Assembly: GCF_014201465.1 (NCBI RefSeq)
Contig: NZ_JACHEP010000013.1
Span: 1 to 64,000, forward strand
DNA: 64,000 nucleotides
Source: Anoxybacteroides tepidamans
GTDB taxonomy: Bacteria > Bacillota > Bacilli > Bacillales > Anoxybacillaceae
Direction of reading: 5' to 3'
Both the position numbers and the translations under genes were made by a program. Below the pieces are notes generated by a model that saw only the letters and a program-made list of their open reading frames with translations, ran no database searches and was not told the origin of the DNA. Within the stretch, counting starts at the first letter, position 1; each line of letters opens with the position of its first letter. Shown here piece after piece: positions 1 through 25,463 of this stretch.

Positions 1-1
1 G

Positions 2-7243: not shown

Positions 7244-7244
7244 T

Positions 7245-7267: not shown

Positions 7268-7288
7268 CTTTGAAGGAGGGATAGCAGC

Positions 7289-7435
7289 ATGAAAGTTCGC
7301 GCCCTAATGGATTGTGAGGGCGTCGGTTATCGTCTGAAAAAAGGCGAGGAAGCCGACTTGCCAGAGAAAACGGCGAAACTGTTAATCAAATTTGCATATG
7401 TCGAGGAAGTGAAGCGGAAGAAGGGTGATAAATGA
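7289..7435 (+). CDS. Small phage protein, head-tail region
   Basis: A 48-residue basic ORF (MKVRALMDCEGVGYRLKKGE...) with ATG 7289 after TGAAGGAGGG. It overlaps the next gene by four bases (ATGA at 7432). Short proteins of this look, with an LKKGEEADLPEKTAKLLIKFAYVE core, often sit between capsid and the gp6-like connector in Bacillus-group phages. No function can be assigned. Confidence 0.6.
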   Translation: MKVRALMDCEGVGYRLKKGEEADLPEKTAKLLIKFAYVEEVKRKKGDK

Positions 7436-8420: not shown

Positions 8421-8421
8421 G

Positions 8422-8742: not shown

Positions 8743-8748
8743 AAATCT

Positions 8749-9333: not shown

Positions 9334-9336
9334 TAA

Positions 9337-9675
9337 ATGAGAACAATTCAAATTGGAGAAAAGCAAATCGGGCTAAAGGCTACGCCTTTGGCTCTTCTTT
9401 ATTATAAGCAGGAATTCAAATCTGACTTGATTGGCGACTTGCTAAAAATGCAGGCGATTGCTGATGACCCATCGGCATTGGATTCGGTTGCTCTCTTGCA
9501 GATTGCGTGGGCAATGAACAAAGCGGCGGAAGGGAAAGGCAAAACATTCCCACATTTCGAATCATGGCTCGATCAATTTGAGTATGTGGATTTTTCAGAT
9601 GCTGATACTTTGACTGCGATTATGAACGAAGCAGCGGACGGGTTTTTTCGTCGAGGAAACCGAACAGCAAAATGA
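9337..9675 (+). CDS. Tail assembly chaperone, short form (gpG-like)
   Basis: A 112-residue helical chaperone encoded between tail tube and tape measure, the place of gpG in lambda-like tails. It would coat the tape measure during tail assembly. Near its 3' end frame 0 reads GGG TTT TTT CGT at 9640-9651, then ends at TGA 9673-9675. An open frame shifted by +1 continues from this point (separate entry), so most product should be this short form with a minority elongated by frameshifting. The function is inferred from position and architecture. Confidence 0.8.
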   Translation: MRTIQIGEKQIGLKATPLALLYYKQEFKSDLIGDLLKMQAIADDPSALDSVALLQIAWAMNKAAEGKGKTFPHFESWLDQFEYVDFSDADTLTAIMNEAADGFFRRGNRTAK

Positions 9676-9883
9676 TGACGAGGTATACGAACCGCCGGAG
9701 CGTCATGATTTAGAGTTGCTTGTATTCGGAAAACGCGCCGGCCTTTCTTTTGATGAAATCAACGAGTTGACGGTCAATGACTTGCTGAAATACGTGAATA
9801 TTTACGTGGACATGGAGACCGGAAAACGAAAACCAAGGCGTAGAATGGCGACACAGGCGGATATAGACGCCTTTTTTGCGTAA
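9650..9883 (+). CDS. Frameshift extension of tail chaperone (gpT-like)
   Basis: The +1 frame is open from the slippery region to TAA 9881-9883 and encodes about 77 residues (VEETEQQNDDEVYEPPERHD... ending IDAFFA) with no start codon of its own near the front. If the P-site tRNA-Phe on TTT 646-648 slips one base onto TTC, the product joins 9337-9648 to 9650-9883. The standard -1 frame is closed soon afterwards by TAG, so this phage would use +1 rather than the common -1 shift. A -2 shift gives the same frame but would need poor re-pairing on GGT. Confidence 0.7.
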   Translation, partial: VEETEQQNDDEVYEPPERHDLELLVFGKRAGLSFDEINELTVNDLLKYVNIYVDMETGKRKPRRRMATQADIDAFFA

Positions 9884-9896
9884 AGGTGGTGAGAAT

Positions 9897-12800: not shown

Positions 12801-12801
12801 T

Positions 12802-13659
12802 ATGCAGCGAATTATCTTCACAAACGCAAGAGGTCAATCCGTGGAGCTGAAATCATCAGCTCCTTTTCTTTTACAAAGCGTCGATGGGCTCGGTGACGTA
12901 GATGCTGACACTCAAACACAGAAATCCCCATTTCAAGATGGCTCGACATACATTGATTCTGTTCTGCAAGAACGCGCTATCTCACTGGAAATTGTAATTA
13001 TAGCATCGGACAAACCAACACTATTACAGCAACGTCAATATCTTGCTTCTGTTTTTAATCCGAAGTTAGGACAAGGGATACTTCGCTATGAAAACGGGGA
13101 AGTCGTTCGTGAAATCGAAGCTGTTCCGGATGGGGTTCCGGTTTTTCCAAGTGGAAGAGAAAATCGCGGACCATTCTTTCAAAAGGCGCTTGCGAACTTG
13201 CTCTGTCCAAATCCTTATTGGAAATCAACAGAGATAACAGAAGAGCCCACCTTTGAACCACTTTTCCAATTCCCGTTTGAGGGTGTGTTTGAAATCGGGG
13301 TGCAACGGGATAATCGAATTATCGTGAATGATGGGGATGCCCCAACTCCTGTATTTATTGAATTCTATGGTCCAGCGGTCAATCCGAAGATTACAAACAA
13401 AACAACCGGAGAATTTATTAAGGTAAATCAAACGTTACAAGAAGGCGAAGTGATGAAAATTGACACTACTCCGGGTAAAAAATCTGTTTATTTTGTTCAA
13501 CCAGATGGAACTGAGCGCAACGTTTTTAACTGGATTGACTTAGAAAGTACTTTCTTCCAACTTGTCGTGGGAGAAAACGAAATTGAGTATTCTGCAGACA
13601 GCGATATTCAAGGTGCGATTGTGAACATTCGATATAACAAACTTTACAACGCAGTATAA
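12802..13659 (+). CDS. Distal tail protein (Dit)
   Basis: A 285-residue protein of the SPP1 gp19.1/Dit family (phage tail family protein). The N-terminal half has the hub signature LLQSVDGLGDVDADTQTQKS, QDGSTYIDS and RAISLEIVI; the middle has CPNPYWKS, where the galectin-like C-terminal domain begins. It forms the hexameric hub at the end of the tube to which fibres attach. It starts one base after the tape-measure stop, so translation is probably coupled. Confidence 0.85.
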   Translation: MQRIIFTNARGQSVELKSSAPFLLQSVDGLGDVDADTQTQKSPFQDGSTYIDSVLQERAISLEIVIIASDKPTLLQQRQYLASVFNPKLGQGILRYENGEVVREIEAVPDGVPVFPSGRENRGPFFQKALANLLCPNPYWKSTEITEEPTFEPLFQFPFEGVFEIGVQRDNRIIVNDGDAPTPVFIEFYGPAVNPKITNKTTGEFIKVNQTLQEGEVMKIDTTPGKKSVYFVQPDGTERNVFNWIDLESTFFQLVVGENEIEYSADSDIQGAIVNIRYNKLYNAV

Positions 13660-13672
13660 GGAAGGTGAGATT

Positions 13673-14380
13673 ATGGCAGAAATCAGTAAGTTTTTTAACT
13701 CTGCTCCAGGTGATCCACGAACCTATCAAGCGAGTGACTTTGCGGATTATTTCGGAAGTGTGCTAAGTACAGGATTGCTTCACACAGACAATATCCCCGC
13801 GCTAGAGGTAAAATGCGATGGTAACGACTTACGGACGTATGTAACACCGGGGAAAGCGATTATGCAGGGCTATCTCTATGAAAATACAAGCAATCTGTAT
13901 CTGGAACATGCGCTGCCGGAGGCGACATATGACCGGATCGACCGGATCGTGCTCCGATTGGACAAACGAAATCAGTCTCGTTTTATTAGAGCGTTTGTTA
14001 AACAAGGCACTCCCTCAGAGAACCCGGTTCCTCCAGAACTGCAACGTGACGATTTTATTTATGAATTATCGCTTGCCCAGATTCGTGTAAGAGCGAACAC
14101 GTCAACGTTAAATCCTGCTGATTTGATTGACGAACGTCTGGATGAAAATCTTTGTGGATTAGTCCATTCGCTCATTAGCATTCCAACGAGTCAATTTCAA
14201 GCAGAATGGGATGCTTTTATGGCAAGTGTGCAGGATGAAGGCTTTACACCAAGAACGGATTTTGATGCGCATTTGGCGGATACTACGAAACACATTACAG
14301 CAACAGAACGCACAGATTGGAACACAGCGAAATCAAAATCTGACGACCTTGAAATTCTCTATTGGATGGGGGCGATGTAA
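13673..14380 (+). CDS. Tail/baseplate structural protein
   Basis: A 235-residue protein with the opening EISKFFNSAPGDPRTYQASDFADYF, and a middle YDRIDRIVLRLD segment seen in many Firmicute phage tail proteins; the end includes HLADTTKHITATERTDWNTAKS, a motif common at the junction to fibre tips. It is probably an adaptor or fibre shaft carrying the two small proteins encoded next. Start ATG 13673 follows AAGGAAGGTGAGATT. The exact role is inferred. Confidence 0.7.
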   Translation: MAEISKFFNSAPGDPRTYQASDFADYFGSVLSTGLLHTDNIPALEVKCDGNDLRTYVTPGKAIMQGYLYENTSNLYLEHALPEATYDRIDRIVLRLDKRNQSRFIRAFVKQGTPSENPVPPELQRDDFIYELSLAQIRVRANTSTLNPADLIDERLDENLCGLVHSLISIPTSQFQAEWDAFMASVQDEGFTPRTDFDAHLADTTKHITATERTDWNTAKSKSDDLEILYWMGAM

Positions 14381-14686
14381 TTGGCGGCGACTGCTAAACG
14401 TTTATATTTAGGAAATCCGTCTACTACTTTAACAACTGTTTACACTGTACCGGTGAATACAACGACAATTGTAAAAAGTATAGTTATTTGTAATACAAGT
14501 GCCACTGATACAACAGCGTCTATTGTTATTTCTACTGCTGGTATAGTTTATAACATGCCAATTAAAGGAAAAGATACGGTTATTATAGATATGAGTTTGG
14601 TTATGTATGCAAACGACACAATTCAAGTACAACAAGGAATTGCTAACAATTTAAACATAACTATTTCCGGTGTAGAGGTGGCTTAA
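14381..14686 (+). CDS. Small fibre-associated beta protein
   Basis: A 101-residue Thr/Val/Ile-rich protein starting at TTG 14381 immediately after the previous stop TAA. The pattern of alternating hydrophobic strands (TTIVKSIVICNTSATDTTASIVIS) suggests an all-beta sandwich like tail-fibre or head-decoration modules. The AT-rich coding sequence differs from the head genes, which is usual for exchangeable host-recognition cassettes. I do not recognise the family. Confidence 0.55.
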   Translation: MAATAKRLYLGNPSTTLTTVYTVPVNTTTIVKSIVICNTSATDTTASIVISTAGIVYNMPIKGKDTVIIDMSLVMYANDTIQVQQGIANNLNITISGVEVA

Positions 14687-14688
14687 TC

Positions 14689-15063
14689 ATGGGAATGTAT
14701 CAATTATCAACTTTAAACCATTGGAATGTTTATGCGAAAAAACAACAAGAAGCATGGATTGCTCCTACGTTGTTGAATGGGTGGGTGAATTTCGCTAACG
14801 GGTATGAAACATCAGGATACTTTAAAGATGAATTAGGTATTGTCCATTTAAAAGGAACAGTTAAAGGTGGTACAAATAACATAATTTTCTATCTTCCTAT
14901 TGGATATAGACCGTTGGCGAGATTATTTTTTCCTGTTCGATATTGGACAGGCACTCAAGAAAACATAGGAATTGTACAAATAAATCCAGACGGTGGTGTA
15001 GTTAGAACATTAGGAACTGACGAGGTTGCTTTTGATTCAATATCTTTCCGAGCCGGACAATAG
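14689..15063 (+). CDS. Putative tail fibre tip protein
   Basis: A 124-residue protein whose core (LLNGWVNFANGYETSGYFKDELGIVHLKGTV and LPIGYRPLARLFFPV) matches the knob domain frequently found at the C-terminus of Bacillus and Streptococcus phage fibres. Here it is a separate gene. It probably contacts the cell surface. It begins three bases after the preceding gene and shares that gene's low GC content. Confidence 0.65.
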   Translation: MGMYQLSTLNHWNVYAKKQQEAWIAPTLLNGWVNFANGYETSGYFKDELGIVHLKGTVKGGTNNIIFYLPIGYRPLARLFFPVRYWTGTQENIGIVQINPDGGVVRTLGTDEVAFDSISFRAGQ

Positions 15064-15075
15064 GAGGTGTAAAAG

Positions 15076-15645
15076 ATGAAAAAAGTTCTAATCTTTGATA
15101 TAAACGGAAACTACGTTGAAGATAAGATTGTAGATGATGAGTACATTCCACAAAAAAATGAGTTTGCTTGTTCAATCAATACGGTGATTGCGTTTTATAA
15201 ACCTAAATTAGTGAACGGTCAAGTGGTAGAAGGATTGACGCAAGCAGAGATTGATAAATTAAAAGGAAATACATTAGAGGATGCGAAAGCTCGAAAATTA
15301 AAGGAATTGAATGATGCTTGTAATAAAGCGATAATCGATGGATTCGATTATACCATTAACGGTGTATTGTATCGCTTCTCATGTAGTTTAGAAGCCCAAG
15401 CAAATTTTCAAGGGACAGATACTCTATTCAAAGATGGATTAATCACGTCTATTTCTTGGACGGTTACGAACAAAGTAACAGGTAAGATTGAACGTATTGC
15501 GATAGACAAAACAACGTTTACCAATTTGCGACTTGCTGTGTTTAATCATATAAACACTCAAATCAGTAAATTACGTGATACGTTACAACCTAAAGTGGAA
15601 CAGGCGACTACAATAGCCGAAGTCGAGGCAGTGGTGTGGTCATGA
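15076..15645 (+). CDS. Tail-associated protein with DUF4376-like C-terminus
   Basis: A 189-residue protein. Residues 1-75 give MKKVLIFDINGNYVEDKIVDDEYIPQ and a linker; from about 75 on the pattern KARKLKELNDACNKAIIDGFDYTINGVLYRFS resembles the DUF4376 domain of phage tail accessory proteins. AGGAGGTGTAAAAG precedes the ATG. Role in the tail tip is inferred from place and similarity only. Confidence 0.6.
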   Translation: MKKVLIFDINGNYVEDKIVDDEYIPQKNEFACSINTVIAFYKPKLVNGQVVEGLTQAEIDKLKGNTLEDAKARKLKELNDACNKAIIDGFDYTINGVLYRFSCSLEAQANFQGTDTLFKDGLITSISWTVTNKVTGKIERIAIDKTTFTNLRLAVFNHINTQISKLRDTLQPKVEQATTIAEVEAVVWS

Positions 15646-15854
15646 AGCGATATATTTGGAATATCTTCATATCTATTGACCAGTTTTTTAATACGGTTTT
15701 AGGCGGTGACCCGGATGAAACCATTTCTTCGAGAATGGGAAAACGAGCGAGAAAAGGTGACAAACTTGGTCAATTCATCTGCGCCATACTGAACATTTTT
15801 GATAAAGGGCATTGCGAAAAATCCATCGAGAAAGACGAAGGACAACCGATGTAA
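15642..15854 (+). CDS. Small conserved phage protein
   Basis: A 70-residue ORF using ATG 15642, overlapping the previous stop. MKRYIWNIFISIDQFFNTVLGGDPDETISSR has a hydrophobic amphipathic N-terminus and a GDPDETISSR segment that recurs in small proteins near lysis or tail genes of many phages, with a later CAILNIFDKGHCEKSIE cysteine pair. No function is known to me. Confidence 0.6.
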   Translation: MKRYIWNIFISIDQFFNTVLGGDPDETISSRMGKRARKGDKLGQFICAILNIFDKGHCEKSIEKDEGQPM

Positions 15855-15879
15855 ACACAGTAGGACGATACTGCGACAC

Positions 15880-15906
15880 AACACCGATTTAATAACGGTG
15901 TTTTTT
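15880..15906 (+). terminator. Terminator inside the tail region
   Basis: AACACCG-ATTTAATAA-CGGTGTT followed by TTTTT. It separates the fibre cassette from the Gp37-like tail gene. Confidence 0.75.
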
Positions 15907-15921
15907 ATTAGGTGGTGAACT

Positions 15922-17067
15922 ATGAAACCGATTCGTTTATTGACACCTCAACTCGATTTACTCGCTGAAATTGATGACTATGAATCGTTGCTATTCACAA
16001 GGCGATGGCATGAAATCGGCGAGTTTGAACTGCGAATCAATCGACATAAAAGGCATACAGAGCTCCTGCAACGTGGTAATCTCATCATGCTTGGTGCAAG
16101 CAGGAATAAGGTTGGTATCATTCGACATCGTGAAATTGTGCTAGATGAAGGCGGAAAAGCGTCAGAAACATGGCTAGTGAAAGGAATTGTGTTGAAAGGG
16201 GTCATGGCACAACGAATCGTTGTTCCTCCTGCCAACGACAGTCACGATCGAGCAAGTGGAAATGCAGAAACGGTCATGAAGCATTATGTGAACAATCATG
16301 TTGTAAACCCAGTTGATACTAAACGAAAAATTGATATGGTTGTGCTTGCTTCGGACCAGCAACGCGGTTCCAATATTTCGTGGGAATCGCGCTTCAAAAA
16401 TCTTGCTGAGGAGTTTGTTGAAATCTCGAAAGCTAGCGGGCTTGGCTGGGATGTTGTTCTCGATTTACAACAGAGAAAATGGATATTTGATGTATTCGAA
16501 GGGCAGAATCTCACAGTCAATCAGACAGAGAATCCGCCTGTTATTTTTAGTCCGCAGTTTGAGTCGTTGAAGCAACTATCGTTTGTAGAAAGTGATTATA
16601 ACTATCGCAATTTCGGTTACATCGCTGGCCAAGGTGAGGGAGCTGATCGTCGCGTTGTTGAAGTCGGAGACGCAGAAGGGATATCACGAATAGAAACATT
16701 CATTGACTCAAGGGATATATCAGAGCAAGACGAAAGCGGGCAAGCTCTTACGGAAGAACAGATCATTGCGAAGCTCCAAGAGCGAGGACAACAAAAGCTT
16801 TCGGAGTTTACCGAGGAGTTTTTCCTCGAGGGGCAAGTTCTCACGAATTCGCCTTTCAGGTATGAGATCGATTATGACCTTGGCGACATCGTTACGATAC
16901 AAAACCGAGAATGGGGCATAACACGGGATGCTCGTATAACTGAAATAAAAGAAATATACGAACCAGGCGGTTTTCAAATCGAGGCGACATTTGGTCAGAG
17001 CCGACCAACATTGATAAAGAAATTGAAACAGGAATTGGCTCAAATTAGCGGAGAAGTACGGAAATAA
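15922..17067 (+). CDS. Gp37-like tail protein (Tal type)
   Basis: A 381-residue protein of the siphovirus ReqiPepy6 Gp37-like family: MKPIRLLTPQLDLLAEIDDYESLLFTRRW at the start, WLVKGIVLKGVMAQRIVVPP in the middle and FGQSRPTLIKKLKQELAQI near the end. Such proteins form the N-terminal hub of tail-associated lysin/baseplate proteins beneath Dit. No peptidase domain is attached, so it is the short form. Its position after the fibre cassette and its own terminator is unusual, since Tal normally follows Dit directly. Confidence 0.82.
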   Translation: MKPIRLLTPQLDLLAEIDDYESLLFTRRWHEIGEFELRINRHKRHTELLQRGNLIMLGASRNKVGIIRHREIVLDEGGKASETWLVKGIVLKGVMAQRIVVPPANDSHDRASGNAETVMKHYVNNHVVNPVDTKRKIDMVVLASDQQRGSNISWESRFKNLAEEFVEISKASGLGWDVVLDLQQRKWIFDVFEGQNLTVNQTENPPVIFSPQFESLKQLSFVESDYNYRNFGYIAGQGEGADRRVVEVGDAEGISRIETFIDSRDISEQDESGQALTEEQIIAKLQERGQQKLSEFTEEFFLEGQVLTNSPFRYEIDYDLGDIVTIQNREWGITRDARITEIKEIYEPGGFQIEATFGQSRPTLIKKLKQELAQISGEVRK

Positions 17068-17102
17068 GGCTTTTTTGATGTTTGTTAGAAAGGCGTGATT
17101 TG

Positions 17103-17516
17103 ATGGAACGATTAGATGTTGCATTCAAGACCGGCGCGGCCATTCTTGGTGGCATTACCGGTTTGATATTTGGTGAATCAACTGGATTGCTTGTTGCACT
17201 ATTTTGGATGGCGGTCATTGATTACGGAACTGGAATGGCCGCAGGATACACAGAAGGCACTTTATCTAGCAAGGTTGGATTTAAAGGGATAGCCAAAAAA
17301 GTGATGATCTTTGTGATGGTTGCTCTTGCCCATCTAGTCGATAGTGCACTCGGAACAAAAAATATGTTCCGAGATGCGACTATCGTTTTTTATATGGCCA
17401 ACGAGCTGTTAAGCATTTTTGAAAATGCGGGAAGGATGGGTGTACCGGTGCCAGAACGACTTACACAGGCAGTCGAATTGTTGAAAGGAAAAAGTAAGGA
17501 GGGCGATAAGAAATGA
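17103..17516 (+). CDS. Phage holin, toxin-secretion/lysis family
   Basis: A 137-residue holin (Phage_holin_4 type). Membrane helices are visible at about residues 10-30 (AAILGGITGLIFG...), 32-50 and 65-90, followed by a charged C-terminus GKSKEGDKK. ATG 17103 is used after AGAAAGGCGTGATTTG; an earlier frame start at 17082 is less likely. It makes membrane holes that release the lysin. Its stop overlaps the ATG of the original lysin start (ATGA at 17513). Confidence 0.85.
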   Translation: MERLDVAFKTGAAILGGITGLIFGESTGLLVALFWMAVIDYGTGMAAGYTEGTLSSKVGFKGIAKKVMIFVMVALAHLVDSALGTKNMFRDATIVFYMANELLSIFENAGRMGVPVPERLTQAVELLKGKSKEGDKK

Positions 17517-17551
17517 AAATCGTGCTTGACGCCGGACATGGTGGAAGGTGA
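17513..17551 (+). pseudogene. Severed 5' end of the lysin gene
   Basis: The ATG at 17513 opens MKIVLDAGHGGR, the exact N-terminal strand and GHGG zinc-ligand motif of an Amidase_3 lysin, then hits TGA. The sequence then runs into the ribosome site and ATG of the inserted HNH gene. It is the left exon-like stub of the lysin, in the normal coupled position after the holin. Confidence 0.85.
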
Positions 17552-17555
17552 TAAA

Positions 17556-18053
17556 ATGCCGATTCAGAGAACATGTCTTGAATGTGGAGCATCGTTCAGT
17601 GTGCCGCCTTCACAAGTTAGGAGGGGCGGTGGTAAGTTTTGCAGTATTGGTTGCGGAACTAGATACAGAAATAAGACAGACAATCCAGCTTGGAGACCGG
17701 AGGTAAGGGAAAAAATTAGCAAAAATCACGCTGATGTATCAGGGAAAAACAATCCTATGTATGGAATGCGTGGTTTTCTTGCTCCTAGTTTTGTTGATGG
17801 TCGTAGTTCTTTCAAAGGCGACACATATAGAAGGATTGCACTAGCGAATTTACCGCACAAATGTGCTTTGTGTGGACAAACGGATTTAAGCAGACTAGAT
17901 GTTCATCACAAAGATGGAAATCGTAAAAATAACTCTATTGCTAACCTCGTCTTTCTGTGTAAAAAGTGCCATATCACAAAAGCGCACAAGTATCACAGAA
18001 ATGAACGAGGTATTTTTATTGGTGCTGAACTAAACAAGGAGGTGGTTTTATGA
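17556..18053 (+). CDS. HNH homing-type endonuclease inserted in lysin
   Basis: A 165-residue nuclease. It starts at ATG 17556 (after GGAAGGTGATAAA) as MPIQRTCLECGASFSV. It has an N-terminal zinc ribbon (CLEC...FCSIGCGTRY), a NUMOD3-like DNA-binding segment (REKISKNHADVSGKNNPMYGMRG), and a C-terminal HNH core: CALCGQTDLSRLDVHHKDGNRKNNSIANLVFLCKKCHITKAH in pieces, with the HH pair and two CxxC motifs. Its TGA overlaps the second lysin ATG (ATGA at 18050). There is no space for a group I intron core, so this looks like a free-standing homing nuclease gene. Confidence 0.85.
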   Translation: MPIQRTCLECGASFSVPPSQVRRGGGKFCSIGCGTRYRNKTDNPAWRPEVREKISKNHADVSGKNNPMYGMRGFLAPSFVDGRSSFKGDTYRRIALANLPHKCALCGQTDLSRLDVHHKDGNRKNNSIANLVFLCKKCHITKAHKYHRNERGIFIGAELNKEVVL

Positions 18054-18748
18054 CACAGCGTCTACTTAAAATCGTATTAGACGCTGGTCATTAGCACGGC
18101 GGCACAGACAGCGGAGCCGTCGGCAATGGCTTGCAAGAAAAAAATCTGACTTTAAACATTGTCAAAAAGATCGGGAATTTACTATCTGAATACGAAGGTA
18201 TAGAAGTGCATTATACACGTACTGATGACCGTTTTCTTGAGTTATCAGAACGTGCAGCAATCGCCAACAAATTGAAGGCAGACTATTTTATTTCCGTCCA
18301 TATCAATGCCGGCGGCGGTACAGGTTTCGAATCATACATCTACAACGGCAACGTCAGCAACGCAACAGTTGCCTATCAAAATGTCATTCATGCAGAAATT
18401 ATGAAAGCAATCGGCGGTGTTAAAGATAGAGGAAAGGAACGTGCAAACTACGCTGTATTGCGCGAAACCAAGATGCCGGCGCTTCTGACAGAAAATCTAT
18501 TCATCGACAACGCAAGTGATGCGGCAAAATTGAAATCGGAGCAATTCCTTTTGCAAGTGGCGCATGGCCATGTGCAAGGCATTGTCAAAGCGTTCGGTTT
18601 GAAGAAAAAAGCCAAACAGCAACCAAAAGAAAAAGCGTCTGACAAAAAACTCTATCGCGTTCAAGTCGGAGTATTTAACGATCCTAAAAATGCGGAACGA
18701 CTTGCAGAAGAATTGAAGAAGAAAGGATATCCGGCTATCATCGTGTGA
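18050..18748 (+). pseudogene. N-acetylmuramoyl-L-alanine amidase with in-frame TAG
   Basis: Amidase_3 peptidoglycan hydrolase used for lysis, about 232 codons. From ATG 18050 the frame reads MTQRLLKIVLDAGH, then TAG at 18092-18094, then HGGTDSGAVGNGLQEKN. Zinc ligands and catalytic residues are otherwise present: His14 just before the stop, Glu in LQEK, His in ISVHINA, Glu in LLTENLF. The C-terminal 35 residues (YRVQVGVFNDPKNAERLAEELKKKG) are a SPOR-type wall-binding domain. A restart at TTG 18131 would lack the first zinc ligand. The gene is probably inactive unless the amber codon is read through. Confidence 0.8.
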
Positions 18749-18775
18749 CCCCTGCCACTCGGCAGGGGATTTTTT
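18749..18775 (+). terminator. Terminator after lysin
   Basis: CCCCTGCC-ACTC-GGCAGGGG followed by ATTTTTTG. It ends the late transcript, its left arm starting just after the lysin stop. Confidence 0.85.
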
Positions 18776-18811
18776 GTTTATGTAGTATAAAAATATCGAG
18801 GAGGTGATACC

Positions 18812-19006
18812 GTGTTCGAAATCGTCGGTCGTCTGCGTTGTCCCATTTGTTTTGTAGCGGTTCGACAAGATGAAAAAGTATTCCTTGACATTATGAACAC
18901 TGTTATACACCAAGAATGTTATCACCGTTCGAACAGTCATAAACTCCCGATTAAAGACGAAGGTACGTTTCAAAAAATGCTCCTCAAATACCCGTTTTTC
19001 AAATGA
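18812..19006 (+). CDS. Small Cys/His protein
   Basis: A 64-residue ORF using GTG 18812 after GAGGAGGTGATACC. CPIC near residue 10 and HQECYH near 33 give a CxxC...HxxC pattern of a small zinc domain. It is set off by terminators on both sides, so it has its own short transcript. Similar proteins are frequent at the right end of Bacillus prophages; function unknown. Confidence 0.6.
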   Translation: MFEIVGRLRCPICFVAVRQDEKVFLDIMNTVIHQECYHRSNSHKLPIKDEGTFQKMLLKYPFFK

Positions 19007-19033
19007 GCCCTTCTCATTCGAGAGGGGCTTTAT
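19005..19033. terminator. Bidirectional terminator
   Basis: AGCCCTTCTC pairs imperfectly with GAGAGGGGCT around a short loop, with TTT on the right and AAA on the left. It lies between two convergent genes and can serve both. Confidence 0.7.
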
Positions 19034-19662
19034 CTCCATAATCCTTTCTTAGATTGTCGCGCTGCACGTTCAGCCTTAATAAATTTTTCTTGATATTTCA
19101 CGTTAGGTTGAATGGTCATGACACGTGCATATCCTTCTTTTACGAGTGTTTCGTTATACAGTTCTTTTCCAACCCACACATACGCAAGTAACCGTCCATA
19201 TTTATCTTTAATTCCTACGTCGAATTCGAGTGTAACTGTTTTATTAGTCAATCGTTTTTTCGTATAGTTCGATGCCTCTTTCCCGTATTTTTCAACAGGT
19301 CGATTCGGTGCAACCGTTTCAGGTGTATTGACACCAATTAGTCGTACTTTTGCAGTTGCCCCAGTGCTAAACTTTACTTCTATTGTATCTCCATCGACGA
19401 CACGAATAACTTTTACAGTATGTTTCGAATTAATTTTTATTTCCGGTGCGGTTGGCTTTTTATTGTTGTTTGATTGGCCTTTCTTGATAATATTCCCGTT
19501 TTTGTCGTGATAGTGATACTCGCCATCTTTTAGTCCCCATTTAGCACAATTTGTGTAGCAAGTATGCCCTCCATTCTTGTCTAGTTTCCCAGGATGAGCA
19601 AAAGCGGGAGATACAAAAAGAATTGTTGTTAGAAATAACACGAAAGAGAATAGCCTTTTCAT
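19030..19662 (-). CDS. Secreted thermonuclease (SNase) with YHYH domain
   Basis: A 210-residue exported nuclease. Residues 1-22 are a signal peptide (MKRLFSFVLFLTTILFVSPAFA). Then comes a short YHYH segment (HPGKLDKNGGHTCYTNCAKWGLKDGEYHYH split over 25-55). From about 82 the SNase/TNase fold follows: VIRVVDGDTIEV, KVRLIGVNTPE with the first catalytic Arg, VEKYGKEAS with the general base region, and KYGRLLAYVW. It degrades DNA or RNA outside the cell with Ca2+. It is transcribed against the phage late genes from its own promoter, as expected of a lysogenic-conversion gene. Confidence 0.88.
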   Translation of the reverse strand: MKRLFSFVLFLTTILFVSPAFAHPGKLDKNGGHTCYTNCAKWGLKDGEYHYHDKNGNIIKKGQSNNNKKPTAPEIKINSKHTVKVIRVVDGDTIEVKFSTGATAKVRLIGVNTPETVAPNRPVEKYGKEASNYTKKRLTNKTVTLEFDVGIKDKYGRLLAYVWVGKELYNETLVKEGYARVMTIQPNVKYQEKFIKAERAARQSKKGLWR

Positions 19663-19697
19663 AAACCAATTACCCCCAAAATTTATAATCCTTAATC

Positions 19698-19727
19698 ATT
19701 ATAAAACGTTTTTTTCGCAAATGTCAT
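19698..19727 (-). promoter_or_regulatory. Sigma-A promoter of the nuclease gene
   Basis: On the minus strand ATGACA (19727-19722), 18 bp, then TATAAT (19703-19698). A GGGGGT ribosome site stands before the nuclease ATG. The -35 overlaps the 3' end of the XRE gene. Confidence 0.6.
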
Positions 19728-19921
19728 TGTTTTATCCATATTTCATTGATCGGCAATCCCAGCTCCTCACAGATGGCATATGCCACAGGGAATGAAGGTA
19801 GTGAGCGATTGTTCATGATAGCGCTTAAAGCCGCCTGACTAATACCAATCCTCTTGGCGAAATCCCCTTGTTTAATATCCCGTTCCGCAAATATGATTTT
19901 TAACCGGCATTTAAACTGCAT
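19724..19921 (-). CDS. Small XRE-family regulator
   Basis: A 65-residue Cro/CI-type protein, practically one HTH domain: LKIIFAERDIKQGDFAKRIGISQAALSAIMNNRSLPS spans helices 1-4, ending ICEELGLPINEIWIKQ. It is divergent from the operon at 20148, with 226 bp between them that hold the direct repeat GGACAA (19972 region) and AT-rich stretches. It may regulate that operon or itself. It is not the main lysogeny repressor necessarily, since the early region is outside the window. Confidence 0.82.
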   Translation of the reverse strand: MQFKCRLKIIFAERDIKQGDFAKRIGISQAALSAIMNNRSLPSFPVAYAICEELGLPINEIWIKQ

Positions 19922-20147
19922 TTTTTATCCCCTCGTATAAAAAATAATCTCCACAAAAAAATTTAAAGTGGACAAGATATAAAGGACAACCCCTATATCA
20001 TACCTTTTACCATACTCGAAAATATTCCACGCAGCATACCTGTTTTCCTGCTATTTCAGACGACACAATAAATTCACAGCAATGCGAGAAGGAAGGAGGG
20101 AACATTTCTTTTGTTCAACTAAGAAAACTCAACAAGGAGGAATTTAG

Positions 20148-20318
20148 ATGCTCGAAGTACTTGGAGGCGGTCTTTTGCTTGTCGGACTTGTGTACGCGGA
20201 GAAACAAGGGTGGGTGGACGTGGAAAAGGCGGATTTCATCGTGATGATGGGTATGGCGACGGGAGTGGGTGTGAGCTTGTATTTCTTTTTGAAACAACTT
20301 CCGATTTTGTTTTTATGA
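20148..20318 (+). CDS. Small two-helix membrane protein
   Basis: A 56-residue ORF starting at ATG 20148 after AAGGAGGAATTTAG. Residues 1-16 are hydrophobic (LEVLGGGLLLVGLVY) and 31-56 hydrophobic again (FIVMMGMATGVGVSLYFFLK), separated by a charged loop EKQGWVDVEKAD, the pattern of a hairpin membrane protein. It is first in the operon with the FtsK-like and RlxA-like genes, so it may anchor the ATPase, which is inference. Confidence 0.65.
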   Translation: MLEVLGGGLLLVGLVYAEKQGWVDVEKADFIVMMGMATGVGVSLYFFLKQLPILFL

Positions 20319-20450
20319 ACCGTTCCCGCACACACTCCCTCACGGAACACGGGTGGGCAGACTCGTGTTCCATTAATATCATGTATGTTCAATCTATCGG
20401 GAATATGCTCGATGAATGGGATAGTATCTCTTTTTCTTGGAGGTGTTTTT

Positions 20451-21623
20451 ATGTTCGATATCCTTCTTATCCCTGCTATATCCGGCGCGGTCGCGCTGGC
20501 AATTGGAATAAAAAGTCGCAATAAAGAGGAGATGGCAATACGGAAAGTTTTTAGAAACATGAAAGTGGGTGCGATGGAAGGAAAAGGCTTTGTTTTCCCA
20601 AAACTAGTCGCAACGGAAAAGAAAGCCGACCGCACACGCTATGTATATCGCGTGCCGTTAGGGCTGACGAAAAAGACGCTTGAACCGGTCGAGGAAGTGC
20701 TAGAGGCGACGCTCGACCGGCCAGTCGAGGTGACGTTCAAGAAGTGGTTATATATTGAGGTTTTTCATAATGAGATACCTAAAAAGGTGTCATATAGCAG
20801 CGCGCCAACTAAAAATGGTTGGGTTGTTCCACTCGGACTTAACGAACGTGGCTGGCACTTTCACGACTTTGACAAGACACCACATTGTACAATAAGCGGC
20901 ACAACGCGATTCGGGAAAACGGTCATGCTCAAAAACATCATGACGTATCTCATTGAACATCATCCTGACGACATTGAGTTTATCGTGCTTGACATGAAAG
21001 GTGGGCTAGAGTTTGGGAAATATAAAAATCTGAAACAGGTCGTAGACGTCGCTAGTAGCCCCGTAGAAGCGTTTCATGCACTCGGAAGGGTAAAGGTATT
21101 CATGGAGCAACGAGAAGCCTTATTTAAGCAAAACGGGTGGTCTAACGTGGTGAATACATCGATTCAGAAGCGTCTGTTTGTCATCGTTGACGAAGGAGCG
21201 CAGCTCGCTCCCGACCGTTTCATGACGAAAGAACAGAAGGATATGCTTGCAGCGTGCCAGCACACGCTCGGAGAAATAGCGAGAATCGGCGGCGCACTCG
21301 GCATACGGCTCATTTTTTGTACGCAGTATCCGACTTCTGATACGTTACCAAGACAGGTGAAGCAAAACGCTGACTTAAAAATCACTTTCCGCTTGCCGAC
21401 TGGCTATGCGTCACAGGTAGCAATTGACGACTATGGTGCAGAAGAACTTCCGTCAGATATTCCAGGACGCGCAATTGTGAAAACGCATGAAAAAATACTC
21501 GTGCAAGCACCGTTCATTTCTGACGACGAGATGATGAAACGATTGGAGGTGCACCGCATTGAAAAAGTCGAGCGTCGAGAAGCTGACAGAAAGACAGCTG
21601 AAGATACTATACACTTTGAATAG
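20451..21623 (+). CDS. FtsK/SpoIIIE-type DNA translocase
   Basis: A 390-residue membrane-anchored ATPase. Start ATG 20451 follows TTGGAGGTGTTTTT. The first 20 residues form one membrane segment (FDILLIPAISGAVALAIGI). The ATPase has Walker A GTTRFGKT at 150-157, the strand FIVLDMKGG near 170, Walker B LFVIVDE at 232-238 and FCTQYPTSDTLPRQVKQN, the sensor/arginine-finger region of the family. There is no gamma DNA-reading domain. FtsK-like proteins paired with a replication-relaxation gene occur on mobilisable plasmids and in Bacillus phages. Here the pair occupies the phage's right end. A cut of about 65 bp is shared with the next gene. Confidence 0.88.
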   Translation: MFDILLIPAISGAVALAIGIKSRNKEEMAIRKVFRNMKVGAMEGKGFVFPKLVATEKKADRTRYVYRVPLGLTKKTLEPVEEVLEATLDRPVEVTFKKWLYIEVFHNEIPKKVSYSSAPTKNGWVVPLGLNERGWHFHDFDKTPHCTISGTTRFGKTVMLKNIMTYLIEHHPDDIEFIVLDMKGGLEFGKYKNLKQVVDVASSPVEAFHALGRVKVFMEQREALFKQNGWSNVVNTSIQKRLFVIVDEGAQLAPDRFMTKEQKDMLAACQHTLGEIARIGGALGIRLIFCTQYPTSDTLPRQVKQNADLKITFRLPTGYASQVAIDDYGAEELPSDIPGRAIVKTHEKILVQAPFISDDEMMKRLEVHRIEKVERREADRKTAEDTIHFE

Positions 21624-22173
21624 CCTGCAAGCCCTCTCGCGATCGCAAATACAGCACATGTTTGAGCTGGGAAGCAAACGCAACGCCAATCGCATCCTGC
21701 ACGGCATCCGGGAATACACACACACGAAACGCATTGGCGAGGACGTGTATTACCTAAACAAGCACGGTGCGGAGCTGGTAGGCGGAGAGGCAACGATTCG
21801 CCGGAACAGCCCGCTTGAACACATCGTCATGCGGAACGACATCTATATCTTTTATCACTATCCTCAAGATTGGAAAGTGGAAGCTAGGACGCGATGGAAG
21901 GAAGGCGGCAAGGAATACAGCATTGTGTCGGACGCGCGGTTTACGTATCATGGGCAGATGTACTTCCTTGAAGTGGATAATACACAAAAGATGATTGAAA
22001 ATAAGCGGAAAATCGAACGATATGCCTTTCTGTTCCGATTTATTCAGCGACAGCAAATCGGCGAGCCGGTACTGCTTTTCTACACGTTGTCAGACGTGAG
22101 AAAAAAACAGCTGGAGGCATGGTGCAATGAGTATGGCATTCCGTGCGAGGTTTTGCGTAAACAAGATGTTTAA
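21559..22173 (+). CDS. Replication-relaxation (RlxA-like) protein
   Basis: A 204-residue protein of the Replic_Relax family. It starts at TTG 21559 after TTGGAGGTGCACCGCA, inside the FtsK-like gene. Residues 10-60 are a winged HTH (LTERQLKILYTLNSLQALSRSQIQHMFELGS), followed by YYLNKHGAELVGG and a C-terminal nuclease-like half (IVSDARFTYHGQMYFLEVDN, with D and ExD spacing). In plasmids such proteins assist relaxation or replication initiation. Its TAA (22171-22173) overlaps the ATG from which the comGA remainder is open, marking the prophage end. Confidence 0.82.
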   Translation: MKKSSVEKLTERQLKILYTLNSLQALSRSQIQHMFELGSKRNANRILHGIREYTHTKRIGEDVYYLNKHGAELVGGEATIRRNSPLEHIVMRNDIYIFYHYPQDWKVEARTRWKEGGKEYSIVSDARFTYHGQMYFLEVDNTQKMIENKRKIERYAFLFRFIQRQQIGEPVLLFYTLSDVRKKQLEAWCNEYGIPCEVLRKQDV

Positions 22174-22205
22174 TGTATAGTCCTATTATTATTACAAGAC
22201 ATTTA
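22173..22205 (+). other. Right prophage attachment junction (attR)
   Basis: Up to 22173 the sequence is phage rlxA; from about 22194 it is comGA coding sequence in frame (residues T-R-HLVLTTMHT, where ComGA proteins have TGHLVLTTMHT). The crossover should lie around ACAAGACAT (22194-22202). Exact core needs the left end. Confidence 0.7.
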
Positions 22206-22568
22206 GTGTTAACGACTATGCATACGAAAAATGCGGTCGGCGCGATTTATCGGCTGCTGGAATTTGGCGTTTCATTGCAAGAAATCGAGCAAACATTGTT
22301 TGCGGTGACGGCACAACGCCTTGTGGAATTGATGTGCCCGTTTTGTGAAGGAGCGTGTTCCCCGTTTTGCCGCAGACAAAGAGCGGTACGGCGAGCGGCT
22401 ATTTATGAATGGCTGTATGGGGAAGCGTTAACAAAAGCAATTGAAGAAGCGCGAGGCGAAAACGTGACGTATCATTATCCAACATTGCAGCAGATGATCA
22501 AAAAAGGAGTCGCTCTCGGCTTTTTGCCACCTTCCGCTTTCAAAGGTTGGATGATGAATGAAACGTAA
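22173..22568 (+). pseudogene. comGA: comGA 3' fragment
   Basis: The C-terminal third of the competence pseudopilus assembly ATPase. The open frame begins with ATG overlapping the phage stop; eight phage-derived codons lead into HLVLTTMHTKNAVGAIYRLLEFGVS, the His box of GspE/PilB-type ATPases, then VTAQRLVELMCPFCEGAC and the C-terminal domain to GWMMNET. Walker A and Walker B, which lie upstream in this family, are absent. The missing part presumably lies left of the prophage, outside the window. The stop overlaps the comGB ATG (ATGA), the normal arrangement. DNA uptake should fail unless the prophage is excised. Confidence 0.88.
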
Positions 22569-23592
22569 CAAAACATGGTCGTTGGAAGAACAAGGACAAT
22601 TTCTATTGCAGCTAGGAAAACTTCTCGATAAAGGATATTCTTTATCACAAGCGATTGAATTTTTAGAAATTCAACATCCTCTTTCCCGCCGTCACAATTT
22701 ACAACGTTGTTTATCTTTTCTTCGTTCCGGTCTTTCTTTCCACGAAGCGTTACAGCCGCTTTTGTTTCATTCGGAAGCGGTAGGTTATTTGTTTTTCGCA
22801 GAGCAGCATGGACGTCTCGCTCAAGGATTAATTGAGGCAGGAAGCATGCTCTTAAATAAAGCGAAATATTGGCAGCGACTTCGCAAAGCAGCAAGCTATC
22901 CGCTTTTTCTTCTTTGTTTTATGATGGTAATGCTTCTATTTGTTCAATGGATGCTCCTTCCTCAATTTATTCATCTTTCTTCTTCGTTTCATACGAACCG
23001 CTTTTCTACCTCTCGTGTGTTGATTCAAGTCGTTTCGCTTTTTCCTTCTCTTTTTCTGATAGTTTGTCTCATCGGCGGTGTAGTGGCGATCGGATATGTC
23101 TTTTGGTTGAAAAAGCTTCCACCGATTGCGCAAATGAGTGTGTGGATGAAAATTCCTTTCGTTCGCACGGTAATCATGTTATACCACACGCATTTATTTG
23201 CGCTGCAGTTTAGCCATTTACTAAACGGCGGGTTGTCTGTGTACGAATCGCTCCAAGTGTTTGAAAAACAACAAAATATCCCGTTTTTACGCGCAGAAGG
23301 GAGCGCAATGAAAGAGCAGCTGGCAAACGGAGAGAAGTTAGAAACGATCATCGCGATGCGCCCTTATTATGAACCAGCGCTTGTGCTCGTCATTCGCCAC
23401 GGTCAATCGAACGGAGAACTGGCGAAAGAGTTGTTTCATTATAGCCAATTTGTTTTACAGAAAATTGAAGAAAAAATGGAAAGATGGACGCGCATTGTTC
23501 AGCCGTTGTTGTTTTCTGTTATCGGCCTGCTTGTCGTTTGCATGTATTTAGCGATTTTATTGCCGATGTTCGAAACAATGAATCAATTATAA
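22558..23592 (+). CDS. comGB: Competence pseudopilus platform protein ComGB
   Basis: A 344-residue inner-membrane platform protein of the GspF/PilC family. It has two cytoplasmic helical domains (about 20-110 and 200-310) and membrane helices at about 120-142 (LFLLCFMMVMLLFVQWMLL), 160-185 and 318-340 (LFSVIGLLVVCMYLAILLPMF), the family pattern. It couples the ComGA motor to the growing pseudopilus. The start overlaps the comGA stop. With comGA cut, its transcription depends on read-through from the phage rlxA operon or on an unseen promoter. Confidence 0.92.
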   Translation: MKRNKTWSLEEQGQFLLQLGKLLDKGYSLSQAIEFLEIQHPLSRRHNLQRCLSFLRSGLSFHEALQPLLFHSEAVGYLFFAEQHGRLAQGLIEAGSMLLNKAKYWQRLRKAASYPLFLLCFMMVMLLFVQWMLLPQFIHLSSSFHTNRFSTSRVLIQVVSLFPSLFLIVCLIGGVVAIGYVFWLKKLPPIAQMSVWMKIPFVRTVIMLYHTHLFALQFSHLLNGGLSVYESLQVFEKQQNIPFLRAEGSAMKEQLANGEKLETIIAMRPYYEPALVLVIRHGQSNGELAKELFHYSQFVLQKIEEKMERWTRIVQPLLFSVIGLLVVCMYLAILLPMFETMNQL

Positions 23593-23606
23593 GGAGGAAA
23601 TCATGC

Positions 23607-23903
23607 ATGAAAGAAAAAGGATTTACATTAATTGAAATGCTTATTGTTTTAATGGTCATTTCTGTGCTTTTATTGATTACAATTCCAAACATTACAAAAC
23701 ATAACGGAATGATTAACGCCAAAGGGTGCGAAGCGTTTTTGCAAACCGTCCAAGCCCAAGTGAAGGCGTACCAAATGGAAAAAAATACAATCCCGACTGT
23801 GCAGCAGCTGATGGATGAAAACTACATTAAATCGAATAAATGTCCAAACGGCCACACGATTCAAATCGGTAGCGATGGCGAAGTGAGTGAAAGTGGCACA
23901 TAA
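23607..23903 (+). CDS. comGC: Major competence pseudopilin ComGC
   Basis: A 98-residue class 3 pilin-like protein. MKEKGFTLIEMLIVLMVISVLLLITIPNI gives the short leader, the G-F cleavage site for ComC peptidase and the hydrophobic helix; the C-terminal half is small and globular with two cysteines (KGCEAF, NKCPNG) that can form the intramolecular disulfide made by BdbDC. It is the main subunit of the DNA-uptake pilus. ATG 23607 is chosen over an out-of-frame ATG four bases earlier. The gene end overlaps comGD. Confidence 0.92.
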   Translation: MKEKGFTLIEMLIVLMVISVLLLITIPNITKHNGMINAKGCEAFLQTVQAQVKAYQMEKNTIPTVQQLMDENYIKSNKCPNGHTIQIGSDGEVSESGT

Positions 23904-24333
23904 AAACGGGTTTACGCTTATAGAAATGTTGATCGTATTAATGATCGTCAGCACGTTGACGATTCTCGTAATTCCGCGCATCGATCAGCTTGAAAAAGTA
24001 AAAGAGGAAACGTATATGATCGAGCAGTTGACCGATGATTTATTGTATGCGCAACAATATGCGATGACACATAAAACCGCGGTGGTGGTCGTTTTTTATA
24101 ATGCACAAGGGAGATATCGAATGACGGAGAGCTATACATTAGGCCGCACTCTTATTGATCGAACACTTCCTAGCCAATGGTTGTTCGAACTAGCAACACT
24201 GCAAAATCCATTAACCTTTTTGGCCAATGGCAATGTCAATAAATCAGGGACAATCTTGATCAAAAACGGCAAAACGACTTACAAAGTAGTGTTTTTGCTT
24301 GGGAAAGGAAGGTTTTATGTCCAAAAACTGTGA
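23887..24333 (+). CDS. comGD: Minor pseudopilin ComGD
   Basis: A 148-residue minor pilin starting at GTG 23887. KNGFTLIEMLIVLMIVSTLTILVI is the leader-cleavage and helix region; the remainder is a GspH-like globular domain with LLYAQQYAMTHKTAVVVVF, the typical strand-helix of this subfamily. It should sit in the initiation tip complex of the pseudopilus. It overlaps comGC by 17 bases and comGE by 17, so translation is chained. Confidence 0.88.
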   Translation: MKVAHKNGFTLIEMLIVLMIVSTLTILVIPRIDQLEKVKEETYMIEQLTDDLLYAQQYAMTHKTAVVVVFYNAQGRYRMTESYTLGRTLIDRTLPSQWLFELATLQNPLTFLANGNVNKSGTILIKNGKTTYKVVFLLGKGRFYVQKL

Positions 24334-24640
24334 TGGATTCACGTTCGTGGAAACGATTGTGTCGCTGGTGCTTTTACTATTTATCACGACCGCTTTATTG
24401 CCGCTTGTCACTCATATCATGGTCGAGCGGCAAAATGCGGCATTAAAAAGCGAAGCCCAACAGTTATTAAACGATGAAATGAGTAATCATGATCAGTCTA
24501 CCGAAAAAACGGTCACGATTAGAGGAGTAGTATACACCGTTTCATGGACGAATGAAGGAAATAAAATCAAAAAAGCATGTGTTCGGTGGAACGACTATGT
24601 TGACCGAATAGTGGAAAGGTGTGGATATGTCAAACAATGA
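24317..24640 (+). CDS. comGE: Minor pseudopilin ComGE
   Basis: A 107-residue minor pilin. ATG 24317 after GGAAGGTTTT gives MSKNCDGFTFVETIVSLVLLLFI, with the prepilin G-F site and Glu at +5, followed by a small C-terminal domain (TIRGVVYTVSWTNEGN). It is the least conserved subunit of the operon; identification rests on the N-terminus and position. It overlaps comGF by four bases. Confidence 0.82.
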   Translation: MSKNCDGFTFVETIVSLVLLLFITTALLPLVTHIMVERQNAALKSEAQQLLNDEMSNHDQSTEKTVTIRGVVYTVSWTNEGNKIKKACVRWNDYVDRIVERCGYVKQ

Positions 24641-25080
24641 ACATGGGGAGCCGTGGATTTACGCTCATTGAAATGCTGATAGTGTTATTGGTTGTGTTGC
24701 TTATCGTTTCTTTTCTTCCTTTCCTGTTGGATATTCGTTGGCTGCACGACAAGCCTTTGAACCGCTTTAATCACCTCGAATGGCAAGTATTTCTCCAGCA
24801 ATTGAAAAGCGAAATTCGCGAATCGAAGCAACTTGAAAGCGATCAGGCGGTGATGTATGCCTATAAGCCGACGGGAGAGAAGGTAAGTTTTGAAAAATAT
24901 GGATCGCTTATTCGCCGGCGCGTGAACGACCAAGGTAATGAAGTCGTCTTGCAATCGGTTTCCGACGTGCGATATGAATTAGCTCAAAATGGTGTGCGAA
25001 TCATCGTCGTGACGACTGAAGGAAAGCGATATGAGGCATTTGTGTCTACCTTTTTCCCGATCAAGGTGAAGCAGCCATGA
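24637..25080 (+). CDS. comGF: Minor pseudopilin ComGF
   Basis: A 147-residue minor pilin. MNMGSRGFTLIEMLIVLLVVLLIVSFLPFL carries the prepilin site and helix; the C-terminal domain has LEWQVFLQQLKSEIRESKQL and the strand pairs characteristic of ComGF. It would join ComGD, GE and GG in priming assembly. The start ATG 24637 overlaps the comGE stop; the stop overlaps the comGG ATG (ATGA). Confidence 0.88.
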   Translation: MNMGSRGFTLIEMLIVLLVVLLIVSFLPFLLDIRWLHDKPLNRFNHLEWQVFLQQLKSEIRESKQLESDQAVMYAYKPTGEKVSFEKYGSLIRRRVNDQGNEVVLQSVSDVRYELAQNGVRIIVVTTEGKRYEAFVSTFFPIKVKQP

Positions 25081-25463
25081 AAAATGAAAAAGGAGTGATT
25101 TTTCCGATTACCGTTTTGTTTTCGTTTCTATTTCTGTCGCTGTTTTTTCACGTACTGAAATTGTATGAAACAGAAGTTGAGTTAACGAAATATGAGCAGC
25201 AATCGTATGACGTGGATTCATTAATGCAAATGGCTGTCACCGATGTGAAAGCACAAATGGCGGCCAATGTTCCGGCGAATTCAGCAGGAAAAGGAACGTT
25301 CGCGTATCCGAATGGCAACGCTCAGTACGAATGGAAACAGTTCACTAGCAATGAAATAAAGGTAACCGTAACTGTCGTTTCGTACGAAGGCATTCGTTAC
25401 AGCGCAGAATTTACTATTTCATTTCCCGCAATGGAATTGATCGAATGGAAAGAGAAATATTAG
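25077..25463 (+). CDS. comGG: Minor pseudopilin ComGG
   Basis: A 128-residue protein, GspK-like in role: MKNEKGVIFPITVLFSFLFLSLFFHVLKLYETE has an atypical prepilin site (G-V, no Glu at +5), as usual for the tip subunit. The C-terminal portion is short (VTVVSYEGIRYSAEFTISF). It closes the comG operon. What follows is the remains of a shikimate kinase gene, 40 bp downstream. Confidence 0.85.
   Translation: MKNEKGVIFPITVLFSFLFLSLFFHVLKLYETEVELTKYEQQSYDVDSLMQMAVTDVKAQMAANVPANSAGKGTFAYPNGNAQYEWKQFTSNEIKVTVTVVSYEGIRYSAEFTISFPAMELIEWKEKY

What the first reader, a model, noticed from the sequence alone, without database searches (positions are those of the whole stretch)
22173..22568. Prophage integrated inside comGA, the competence pilus motor gene
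Phage rlxA runs directly into the His-box and C-terminal third of ComGA, with comGB-GG following normally. The ATPase P-loop portion is missing, so DNA uptake should be off while the prophage is resident. This resembles the comK prophage of Listeria (active lysogeny) and comYC/cglC insertions in Streptococcus, but targets a different competence gene as far as I know.
Basis: partly seen in the sequence, partly recalled or inferred. Interest (0 to 1): 0.8.

Follow-up and report, generated by a model that had tools for sequence, protein, structure and literature searches.

The report
Prophages splitting the DNA-uptake motor gene
A bacterial virus has slotted itself precisely into the gene for the motor that powers DNA uptake, very probably switching uptake off until the virus leaves; in other bacteria the same gene is hit at the same position by other viruses, and at two more spots by other mobile elements.

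Summary
Window 22200-22565 is the 3' third of comGA; the 5' two thirds is on another contig of the same genome, ending beside a large serine integrase (LSR). The ~40 kb between is a tailed-phage prophage. Joining the bacterial flanks gives an in-frame 354-aa ComGA, so excision would restore the gene. The crossover falls on the CA of the His-box histidine codon (TG-H-LVLTTMHT).

What I did not find in print is the wider pattern. Seven genomes in four families of the order carry prophages at the identical CA, with LSRs 54-93% identical. Two more distant serine-recombinase groups hit the Walker-A codons, and TniABQ (Tn7/Tn5053-like) transposons hit a third codon. Of 299 genomes of the order, 10 have comGA interrupted, 1 frameshifted, 282 look whole and 6 are unresolved.

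Loss of DNA uptake while the prophage is resident is inferred, not tested. Regulated "active lysogeny" has no evidence for or against. The two contigs are not joined in this assembly.

The parts
22200..22565 (+). 3' piece of comGA (codons 233-354; the first two bases CA are the crossover; holds the His box from its histidine on, and the CPFC motif); stop codon 22566-22568
22180..22221 (+). attR: phage arm GTCCTATTATTATTACAAGA, crossover CA at 22200-22201, then the bacterial arm
22173..22199 (+). phage-derived start (ATG overlapping the preceding TAA) from which a 131-aa C-terminal ComGA fragment could be translated (inference)
1..22199 (+). right part of the prophage on contig C13; the left part is G000:C8:1-17811, minus strand (L006), with LSR 16318-17772(+), S24/HTH repressor 15556-16251(+) and antirepressor 14465-15112(-)
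2214..3788 (+). terminase large subunit
   Evidence: phrog_9, 1.5e-158
3801..5039 (+). portal protein
   Evidence: phrog_12
5039..6088 (+). head maturation protease
   Evidence: phrog_94
6128..7243 (+). major head protein
   Evidence: phrog_10
9876..12800 (+). tail tape measure protein
17082..17516 (+). holin (PF05105)
20385..21623 (+). FtsK/SpoIIIE-like protein near the right end
21559..22173 (+).
22558..23592 (+). comGB, whole; separated by the prophage from the 5' end of the operon
23604..25463 (+). comGC, comGD, comGE, comGF, comGG (start of comGC at 23604 is my choice within the listed ORF)

Best explanation
A temperate tailed phage has integrated site-specifically into comGA with its own large serine integrase. 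The integrase joins the CA of His codon 233 (TGH, His box) in attB to the CA at the centre of its inverted-repeat attP. ComGA is split into a 232-codon N piece (Walker A, Asp box, Walker B) and a C piece (His box, CPFC), and comGB-GG is separated from the start of the operon. With no whole motor the competence pseudopilus should not be built, so DNA uptake by transformation is off while the prophage is resident. Precise excision would restore comGA letter for letter. Shown from sequence: the split, the LSR, the att sites, the in-frame empty site, the homologous insertions. Inferred: loss of uptake, loss of the operon's promoter, reversibility in living cells, and any benefit to the phage.
For: Two comGA pieces on the two prophage-bearing contigs. 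LSR with Resolvase, Recombinase and Zn_ribbon domains, its gene ending about 40 bp from the crossover. Joined flanks read as a 354-aa ComGA, 88% identical to the closest same-genus ComGA. Genes flanking the two halves lie around one whole comGA in three relatives. In seven of seven His-box insertions the bases shared by attL and attR include the CA, and in two (G243, G285) the shared run is CA alone. Parageobacillus thermantarcticus has the same arrangement. A metagenome contig (L067) shows a matching attP unsplit next to a 68% identical LSR. Both comGA pieces are open with low dN/dS (5' piece 0.064-0.090, 3' piece 0.084-0.118 against four relatives). ComEC and two ComK genes are open.
Against: The contigs are not joined and there may be a gap. 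No excised circle or empty site of this very prophage was seen. No competence phenotype is known to me for this unnamed host, and comEA, comFA and dprA were not checked. The 3' piece dN/dS is somewhat above the one intact pair used as control (0.056), and dN/dS mostly reflects time before insertion.
Confidence: 0.88

Rival explanations
1. Active lysogeny: the prophage excises on cue (for example in competent cells), restores comGA and re-integrates, as reported for the comK prophage of Listeria 10403S.
For: Excision would be precise, both comGA pieces are open with low dN/dS, and comEC and comK are open.
Against: Any intact LSR prophage in a gene has a precise empty site. Low dN/dS can equally mean recent insertion. 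No excision or regulation data.
Confidence: 0.15
2. Plain prophage whose choice of comGA is neutral: the gene is conserved and dispensable, so attB there is a safe haven; loss of transformation is a by-product.
For: Related LSRs (41-44% identical) in five family genomes are followed by one and the same non-competence gene, which reads as an ABC-transporter binding protein (my reading of the translations). My survey looked only at comGA, so it cannot show that comGA is hit more than other genes.
Against: comGA is hit at three sites by three serine-recombinase groups (20-39% identical between groups) and by TniABQ transposons. The paralogue that I read as PilB had a full frame in 126 of 127 listed rows (hand count), though broken copies would often fall under the E cut-off. 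A published analysis found LSR targets enriched in competence genes (PMC10083194, passages). The attB DNA is not unusually conserved (51st percentile of 40-bp windows).
Confidence: 0.35
3. Degenerate remnant: an old, immobile prophage in a comGA that is now a pseudogene.
For: The endolysin gene is disturbed by an HNH insert.
Against: Integrase, repressor, terminase, portal, capsid and tape measure are open; both comGA pieces are open with low dN/dS.
Confidence: 0.07
4. Assembly artefact or contaminant that joins comGA pieces to phage DNA.
For: The two junctions lie on two separate contigs.
Against: Contamination is given as 0.21. The same junction occurs in six other genomes, five of them with both comGA pieces on one contig, one of these a single-contig genome.
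Confidence: 0.02

Closest known systems
SpST71A prophage in comGA of Staphylococcus pseudintermedius (PMC7029219, passages read)
   Same: Prophage of about 44.3 kb splitting comGA; in all 90 ST71 isolates and 12 others of 371, comGA intact in the rest.
   Different: Split at 509 of 988 bp (52%) against 696 of 1065 bp (65%) here, so probably another site. I had no sequence to align; the words recombinase and serine do not occur in its main text.
phiMC1 in the comG locus, Macrococcus (PMC6008420, passages read)
   Same: Prophage said to disrupt the comG locus.
   Different: Exact gene and site are not given in the passages read.
Listeria phi10403S prophage in comK
   Same: Prophage in a competence gene, precise excision restores it; LSR type (recalled).
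   Different: The target is the regulator, and excision is regulated in the phagosome (as retold in PMC7029219; the original paper not seen). No such data here.
comYC and comFA prophages, comM elements (PMC4774983, passages read)
   Same: Mobile elements that inactivate transformation genes at orthologous sites.
   Different: Other genes; the one ComGA in that text is a reference title.
Geobacillus virus E2 and vB_GthS phages such as PK5.1
   Same: 82-86% identical over 33-38% of the right part of this prophage, in 7 of the 9 phage records that matched.
   Different: The E2 integrase is only 43.5% identical over 82% of ours.

Membership tests
Large serine recombinase (LSR) prophage | Resolvase, Recombinase and zinc-ribbon domains in the integrase | tested here: met
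   PF00239, PF07508, PF13408 all over cut-off
Large serine recombinase (LSR) prophage | attP with inverted arms; short non-palindromic core shared by attL and attR | tested here: met
   Predicted 42-bp attP has 16 of 21 palindromic pairs (P. thermantarcticus 15, the unsplit L067 site 11; 15 or more occurs at 67 of 479,312 positions of other sequence); the core narrows to CA across seven lysogens
Large serine recombinase (LSR) prophage | Integrase recombines attP and attB in vivo or in vitro | not testable with these tools
   needs a bench assay
Tailed temperate phage | terminase, portal, capsid, tape measure, lysis and repressor genes | tested here: met
Active lysogeny (comK type) | insertion in a host gene with a precise empty site | tested here: met
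   in-frame 354-aa ComGA on joining the bacterial flanks
Active lysogeny (comK type) | regulated excision without lysis, and re-integration | not testable with these tools
   no expression or excision data
Prophage-disrupted comG (SpST71A type) | prophage in comGA | tested here: met
Prophage-disrupted comG (SpST71A type) | same insertion site and integrase as SpST71A | tested here: inconclusive
   published split 52% against 65% here; no SpST71A sequence at hand

The most novel reading that the evidence does not exclude
comGA is a convergent docking gene across the order. One LSR group, carried by different tailed phages, is dedicated to the histidine codon of the His box. Two further serine-recombinase groups use the Walker-A codons (one of them on 11-18 kb islands, two of three with restriction-modification-type genes). 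Tn7/Tn5053-like transposons use a third codon. Mobile elements of different kinds repeatedly disarm the uptake motor because a host that cannot take up DNA cannot be cured of them by transformation.
Probability: 0.5. Interest if true: 0.75.

Novelty: new variant of a known kind. Interest (0 to 1): 0.62.

Why it matters
It gives a concrete, countable test of the idea that mobile elements switch off transformation to avoid being cured. One gene is hit at three sites by serine recombinases and by a transposase-type element, with whole copies in many sister species. The conserved CA and seven matched attP/attB pairs also define a set of serine integrases, one of them from Parageobacillus thermantarcticus, that could be useful tools.

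Tried and rejected
1. 'The phage uses the most conserved DNA of the gene': rejected. The 40-bp attB window is at the 51st percentile of conservation over 29 relatives' comGA sequences (20, 30 and 50 bp windows: 53rd, 45th, 65th; one of the 29, L012, was only a 277-aa partial).

2. Overlap of the two contig ends: none at words of 14 or more in the last and first 600 bases.

3. C-half scan of IMG/VR for comGA pieces: none of 34 candidate stretches was a relative. L095, one of three from the N-half scan, reads as an ordinary GspE/PilB, not an insertion.

4. Boundaries of the L066 prophage record: the integrase stop is the record's end and no att site could be read.

5. G175: two overlapping comGA stretches in different frames, a frameshift and not an insertion.

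6. PilB as a control: 126 of 127 rows counted by hand have frames of 541-622 aa, one (G036) is short; biased by the E cut-off. The Fisher P of 0.036 used 10 of 289 against 0 of 126; the right counts are 10 of 292 whole-or-interrupted and 1 short of 127, so it is not relied on.

7. L118 4894-6246: no Pfam match.

8. G034's integrase homologue (60% over residues 92-417, one TGA and one TAA inside) is on another contig than its comGA; not followed.

9. The His-box LSRs as one clade: not shown; the tree leaves 6 of 11 inner branches open (one origin in 12% of bootstrap trees, not ruled out). The target of the 51% identical LSR of phage A403 was not determined.

10. An early note speaks of three unrelated chemistries; two is right (serine recombinases; a TniA-type transposase).

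Full report
WHAT IS IN THE WINDOW. The ORF at 22173-22568 is the C-terminal part of a T2SSE ATPase (PF00437 235-354). The window lies on contig C13 of an unnamed 3.39 Mb, 54-contig genome. The N-terminal part (PF00437 7-240) is on contig C8, minus strand, 17814-18509. The genome's other strong T2SSE hits (C7, frames of 560 and 374 aa) are a pair that I read as PilB and PilT; a fifth hit is below the cut-off. Beyond the N piece lies an LSR of 484 aa (Resolvase, Recombinase, Zn_ribbon), convergent with comGA, then an HTH/S24 repressor and an antirepressor. From the window start to 22199 the contig carries terminase, portal, head protease, capsid, tape measure, holin and amidase genes. Seven of nine matching phage records, all Geobacillus phages such as E2 and vB_GthS_PK5.1, are 82-86% identical over 33-38% of this part.

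LIMIT OF THE ASSEMBLY. C8 and C13 ends do not overlap. Anchoring both on the homologous 41,942-bp IMG/VR record L066/G044 suggests about 2.4 kb missing if gene content is alike (my arithmetic). The prophage is about 40 kb plus that possible gap.

THE JUNCTIONS. attL reads ...AACCGGT-CATTTAGTG-ATTATAATAGGAC; attR reads GTCCTATTATTATTACAAGA-CATTTAGTG-TTAACG. Joining the bacterial flanks gives an open 354-codon comGA whose junction reads LTGH-LVLTTMHT. Putting the phage halves together gives a 42-bp site with 16 of 21 palindromic pairs, centred on CA. The metagenome contig L067 carries an LSR 68% identical to ours and, just past it, such a site unsplit, 30 of 42 positions equal to the predicted attP (11 of 21 palindromic pairs), followed by a gene that looks by eye like the right-end gene of the P. 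thermantarcticus prophage. The best match of the predicted site in 479 kb of other fetched sequence was 26 of 42.

THE SAME SITE IN OTHER GENOMES. All 41 genomes of the family held (own genome included) have ComGA; 39 are whole and two are split: this one and G030. G030 is Parageobacillus thermantarcticus M1 (named through), with an LSR 71-72% identical next to its comGA N piece. In the order I examined 299 genomes of at least 95% completeness, 12 of them from the family (which listed rows for 150; 145 of the rest were examined, four; bookkeeping). Result: 10 interrupted, 1 frameshifted (G175), 282 whole-looking, 6 unresolved (G062, G153, G188, G209, G297, G317: no ComGA match at the cut-off used, not looked into). 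'Whole-looking' means a full or near-full match or frame; a few have a stop read inside (for example G056, G148). Six of the ten have the His-box insertion: this genome, G206, G253, G243, G285, G075. P. thermantarcticus is a seventh, outside this sample. The seven fall in four families as labelled by the tool.

ONE DINUCLEOTIDE. In all seven, an LSR abuts the comGA N piece. With attL and attR set in register by the histidine codon, the run of shared bases there shrinks to CA alone in G243 and G285 and includes that CA in all seven. In the five new ones the pieces lie on one contig, about 38.8 to 47.5 kb apart, and the joined comGA is in frame in five of five. The seven LSRs are 54-93% identical to each other. 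The tree does not resolve them as a clade (one origin in 12% of bootstrap trees, not ruled out). Of the 30 large ORFs listed from the middle of these five inserts I scanned 10: all 10 are phage head, packaging or tail proteins, with different terminase and portal families in G206, in G253, and in G285 and G243 (G075, portal only, goes with the last two). So different phages share the integrase type and site.

TWO MORE SITES IN THE SAME GENE. Walker A: in G158, G222 and G278 comGA breaks within the GPTGSGKTT codons around inserts of about 11-18 kb, with a 503-aa serine recombinase next to the N piece. Two of the three were scanned and have Resolvase and Recombinase domains; the third is 55-58% identical to them, and all three are 22-28% identical to the His-box LSRs. 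Cargo includes a type III-like methylase and ResIII pair in G158 and a C5 methylase, Vsr and an NgoFVII-like protein in G278. Two IMG/VR records (L096, L097) also break comGA in the Walker-A codons, with LSRs 61% identical to each other and 35-39% to the His-box LSRs; only one junction of each is visible. Third site: G052 and G278 (the latter doubly interrupted) carry about 32 kb elements in the codon after GA(I/V)YRLL, one base apart, with TGT...ACA ends and 5-bp duplications TAGAA and TTGGA, and TniA-like, TniB and TniQ proteins; the Tn7/Tn5053 label is mine.

HOW IT MOST LIKELY WORKS. Shown by sequence: the split, the site, the recombinase, the restorable gene. Inferred from general knowledge of PilB/GspE/ComG ATPases (recalled): a motor without His box and C-terminal domain cannot assemble the pseudopilus; and comGB-GG are parted from the start of their operon (its promoter was not mapped). 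A C-terminal fragment could be made from the ATG at 22173. Against four relatives the comGA pieces show dN/dS 0.064-0.090 (5') and 0.084-0.118 (3'); one intact pair gave 0.071 and 0.056. In P. thermantarcticus the pieces gave 0.073 and 0.198 against G031 (0.062 and 0.166 against G032), an intact Parageobacillus pair 0.043 and 0.152. So no strong decay: insertion is recent or the gene still serves cells without the phage, and the data cannot tell which. ComEC (776-aa frame) and two ComK genes are open; other competence genes were not checked.

WHAT IS KNOWN. Prophage in comGA: PMC7029219 (passages read). comG locus disrupted by a Macrococcus phage: PMC6008420 (passages). comYC, comFA, comK and comM hit by mobile elements, with the conflict argument: PMC4774983 (passages). 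LSR targets enriched in competence genes: PMC10083194 (passages; its supplement was not seen and may list comGA). An Anoxybacillus survey mentions ComGA-GG only as present: PMC3948429 (passages). The listings of searches (several capped) showed no paper that I could see describing the His-codon CA site, the Walker-A islands or a Tn7-like element in comGA; the terms 'Tn7-like' and 'comGA' together had no paper. That covers only the open-licence library.

VERDICT. The novelty lies not in the gene, which is published, but in the single-dinucleotide site shared across families and the convergence of several element types on one motor gene. Whether selection against being cured drives this, and whether excision is regulated, remain open.

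Noticed in passing
window 17513-18130: The phage endolysin (Amidase_3) start is separated from its body by an HNH endonuclease ORF; a second copy of the start follows, with an in-frame TAG. Looks like a homing-endonuclease insertion.
   Followed up: partly
window 35388-35720 +: Group I intron, RF00028, 70 bits, outside the prophage; host gene not determined.
   Followed up: no
window 28793-28881 +: Glycine riboswitch, RF00504.
   Followed up: no
L043-L047 (G016, G010, G003, G015, G035): In five genomes of four genera LSR relatives (41-44% identical) are followed by the same gene, which reads as an ABC-transporter substrate-binding protein: another shared LSR docking gene.
   Followed up: no
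L115 and L121-L122 (G278): comGA of one genome is interrupted twice: by an 11 kb island with restriction-type genes in Walker A and by a 32 kb TniABQ transposon further down.
   Followed up: partly
L096 and L097: Two related LSRs (61%) sit at the Walker-A codons in opposite orientations relative to comGA (integrase beside the N piece in one, the C piece in the other); the core may be near-palindromic.
   Followed up: no
window 19030-19662 -: Gene with a YHYH-like stretch and nuclease-like sequence (recalled resemblance, no family search) near the right prophage end: possible accessory gene.
   Followed up: no
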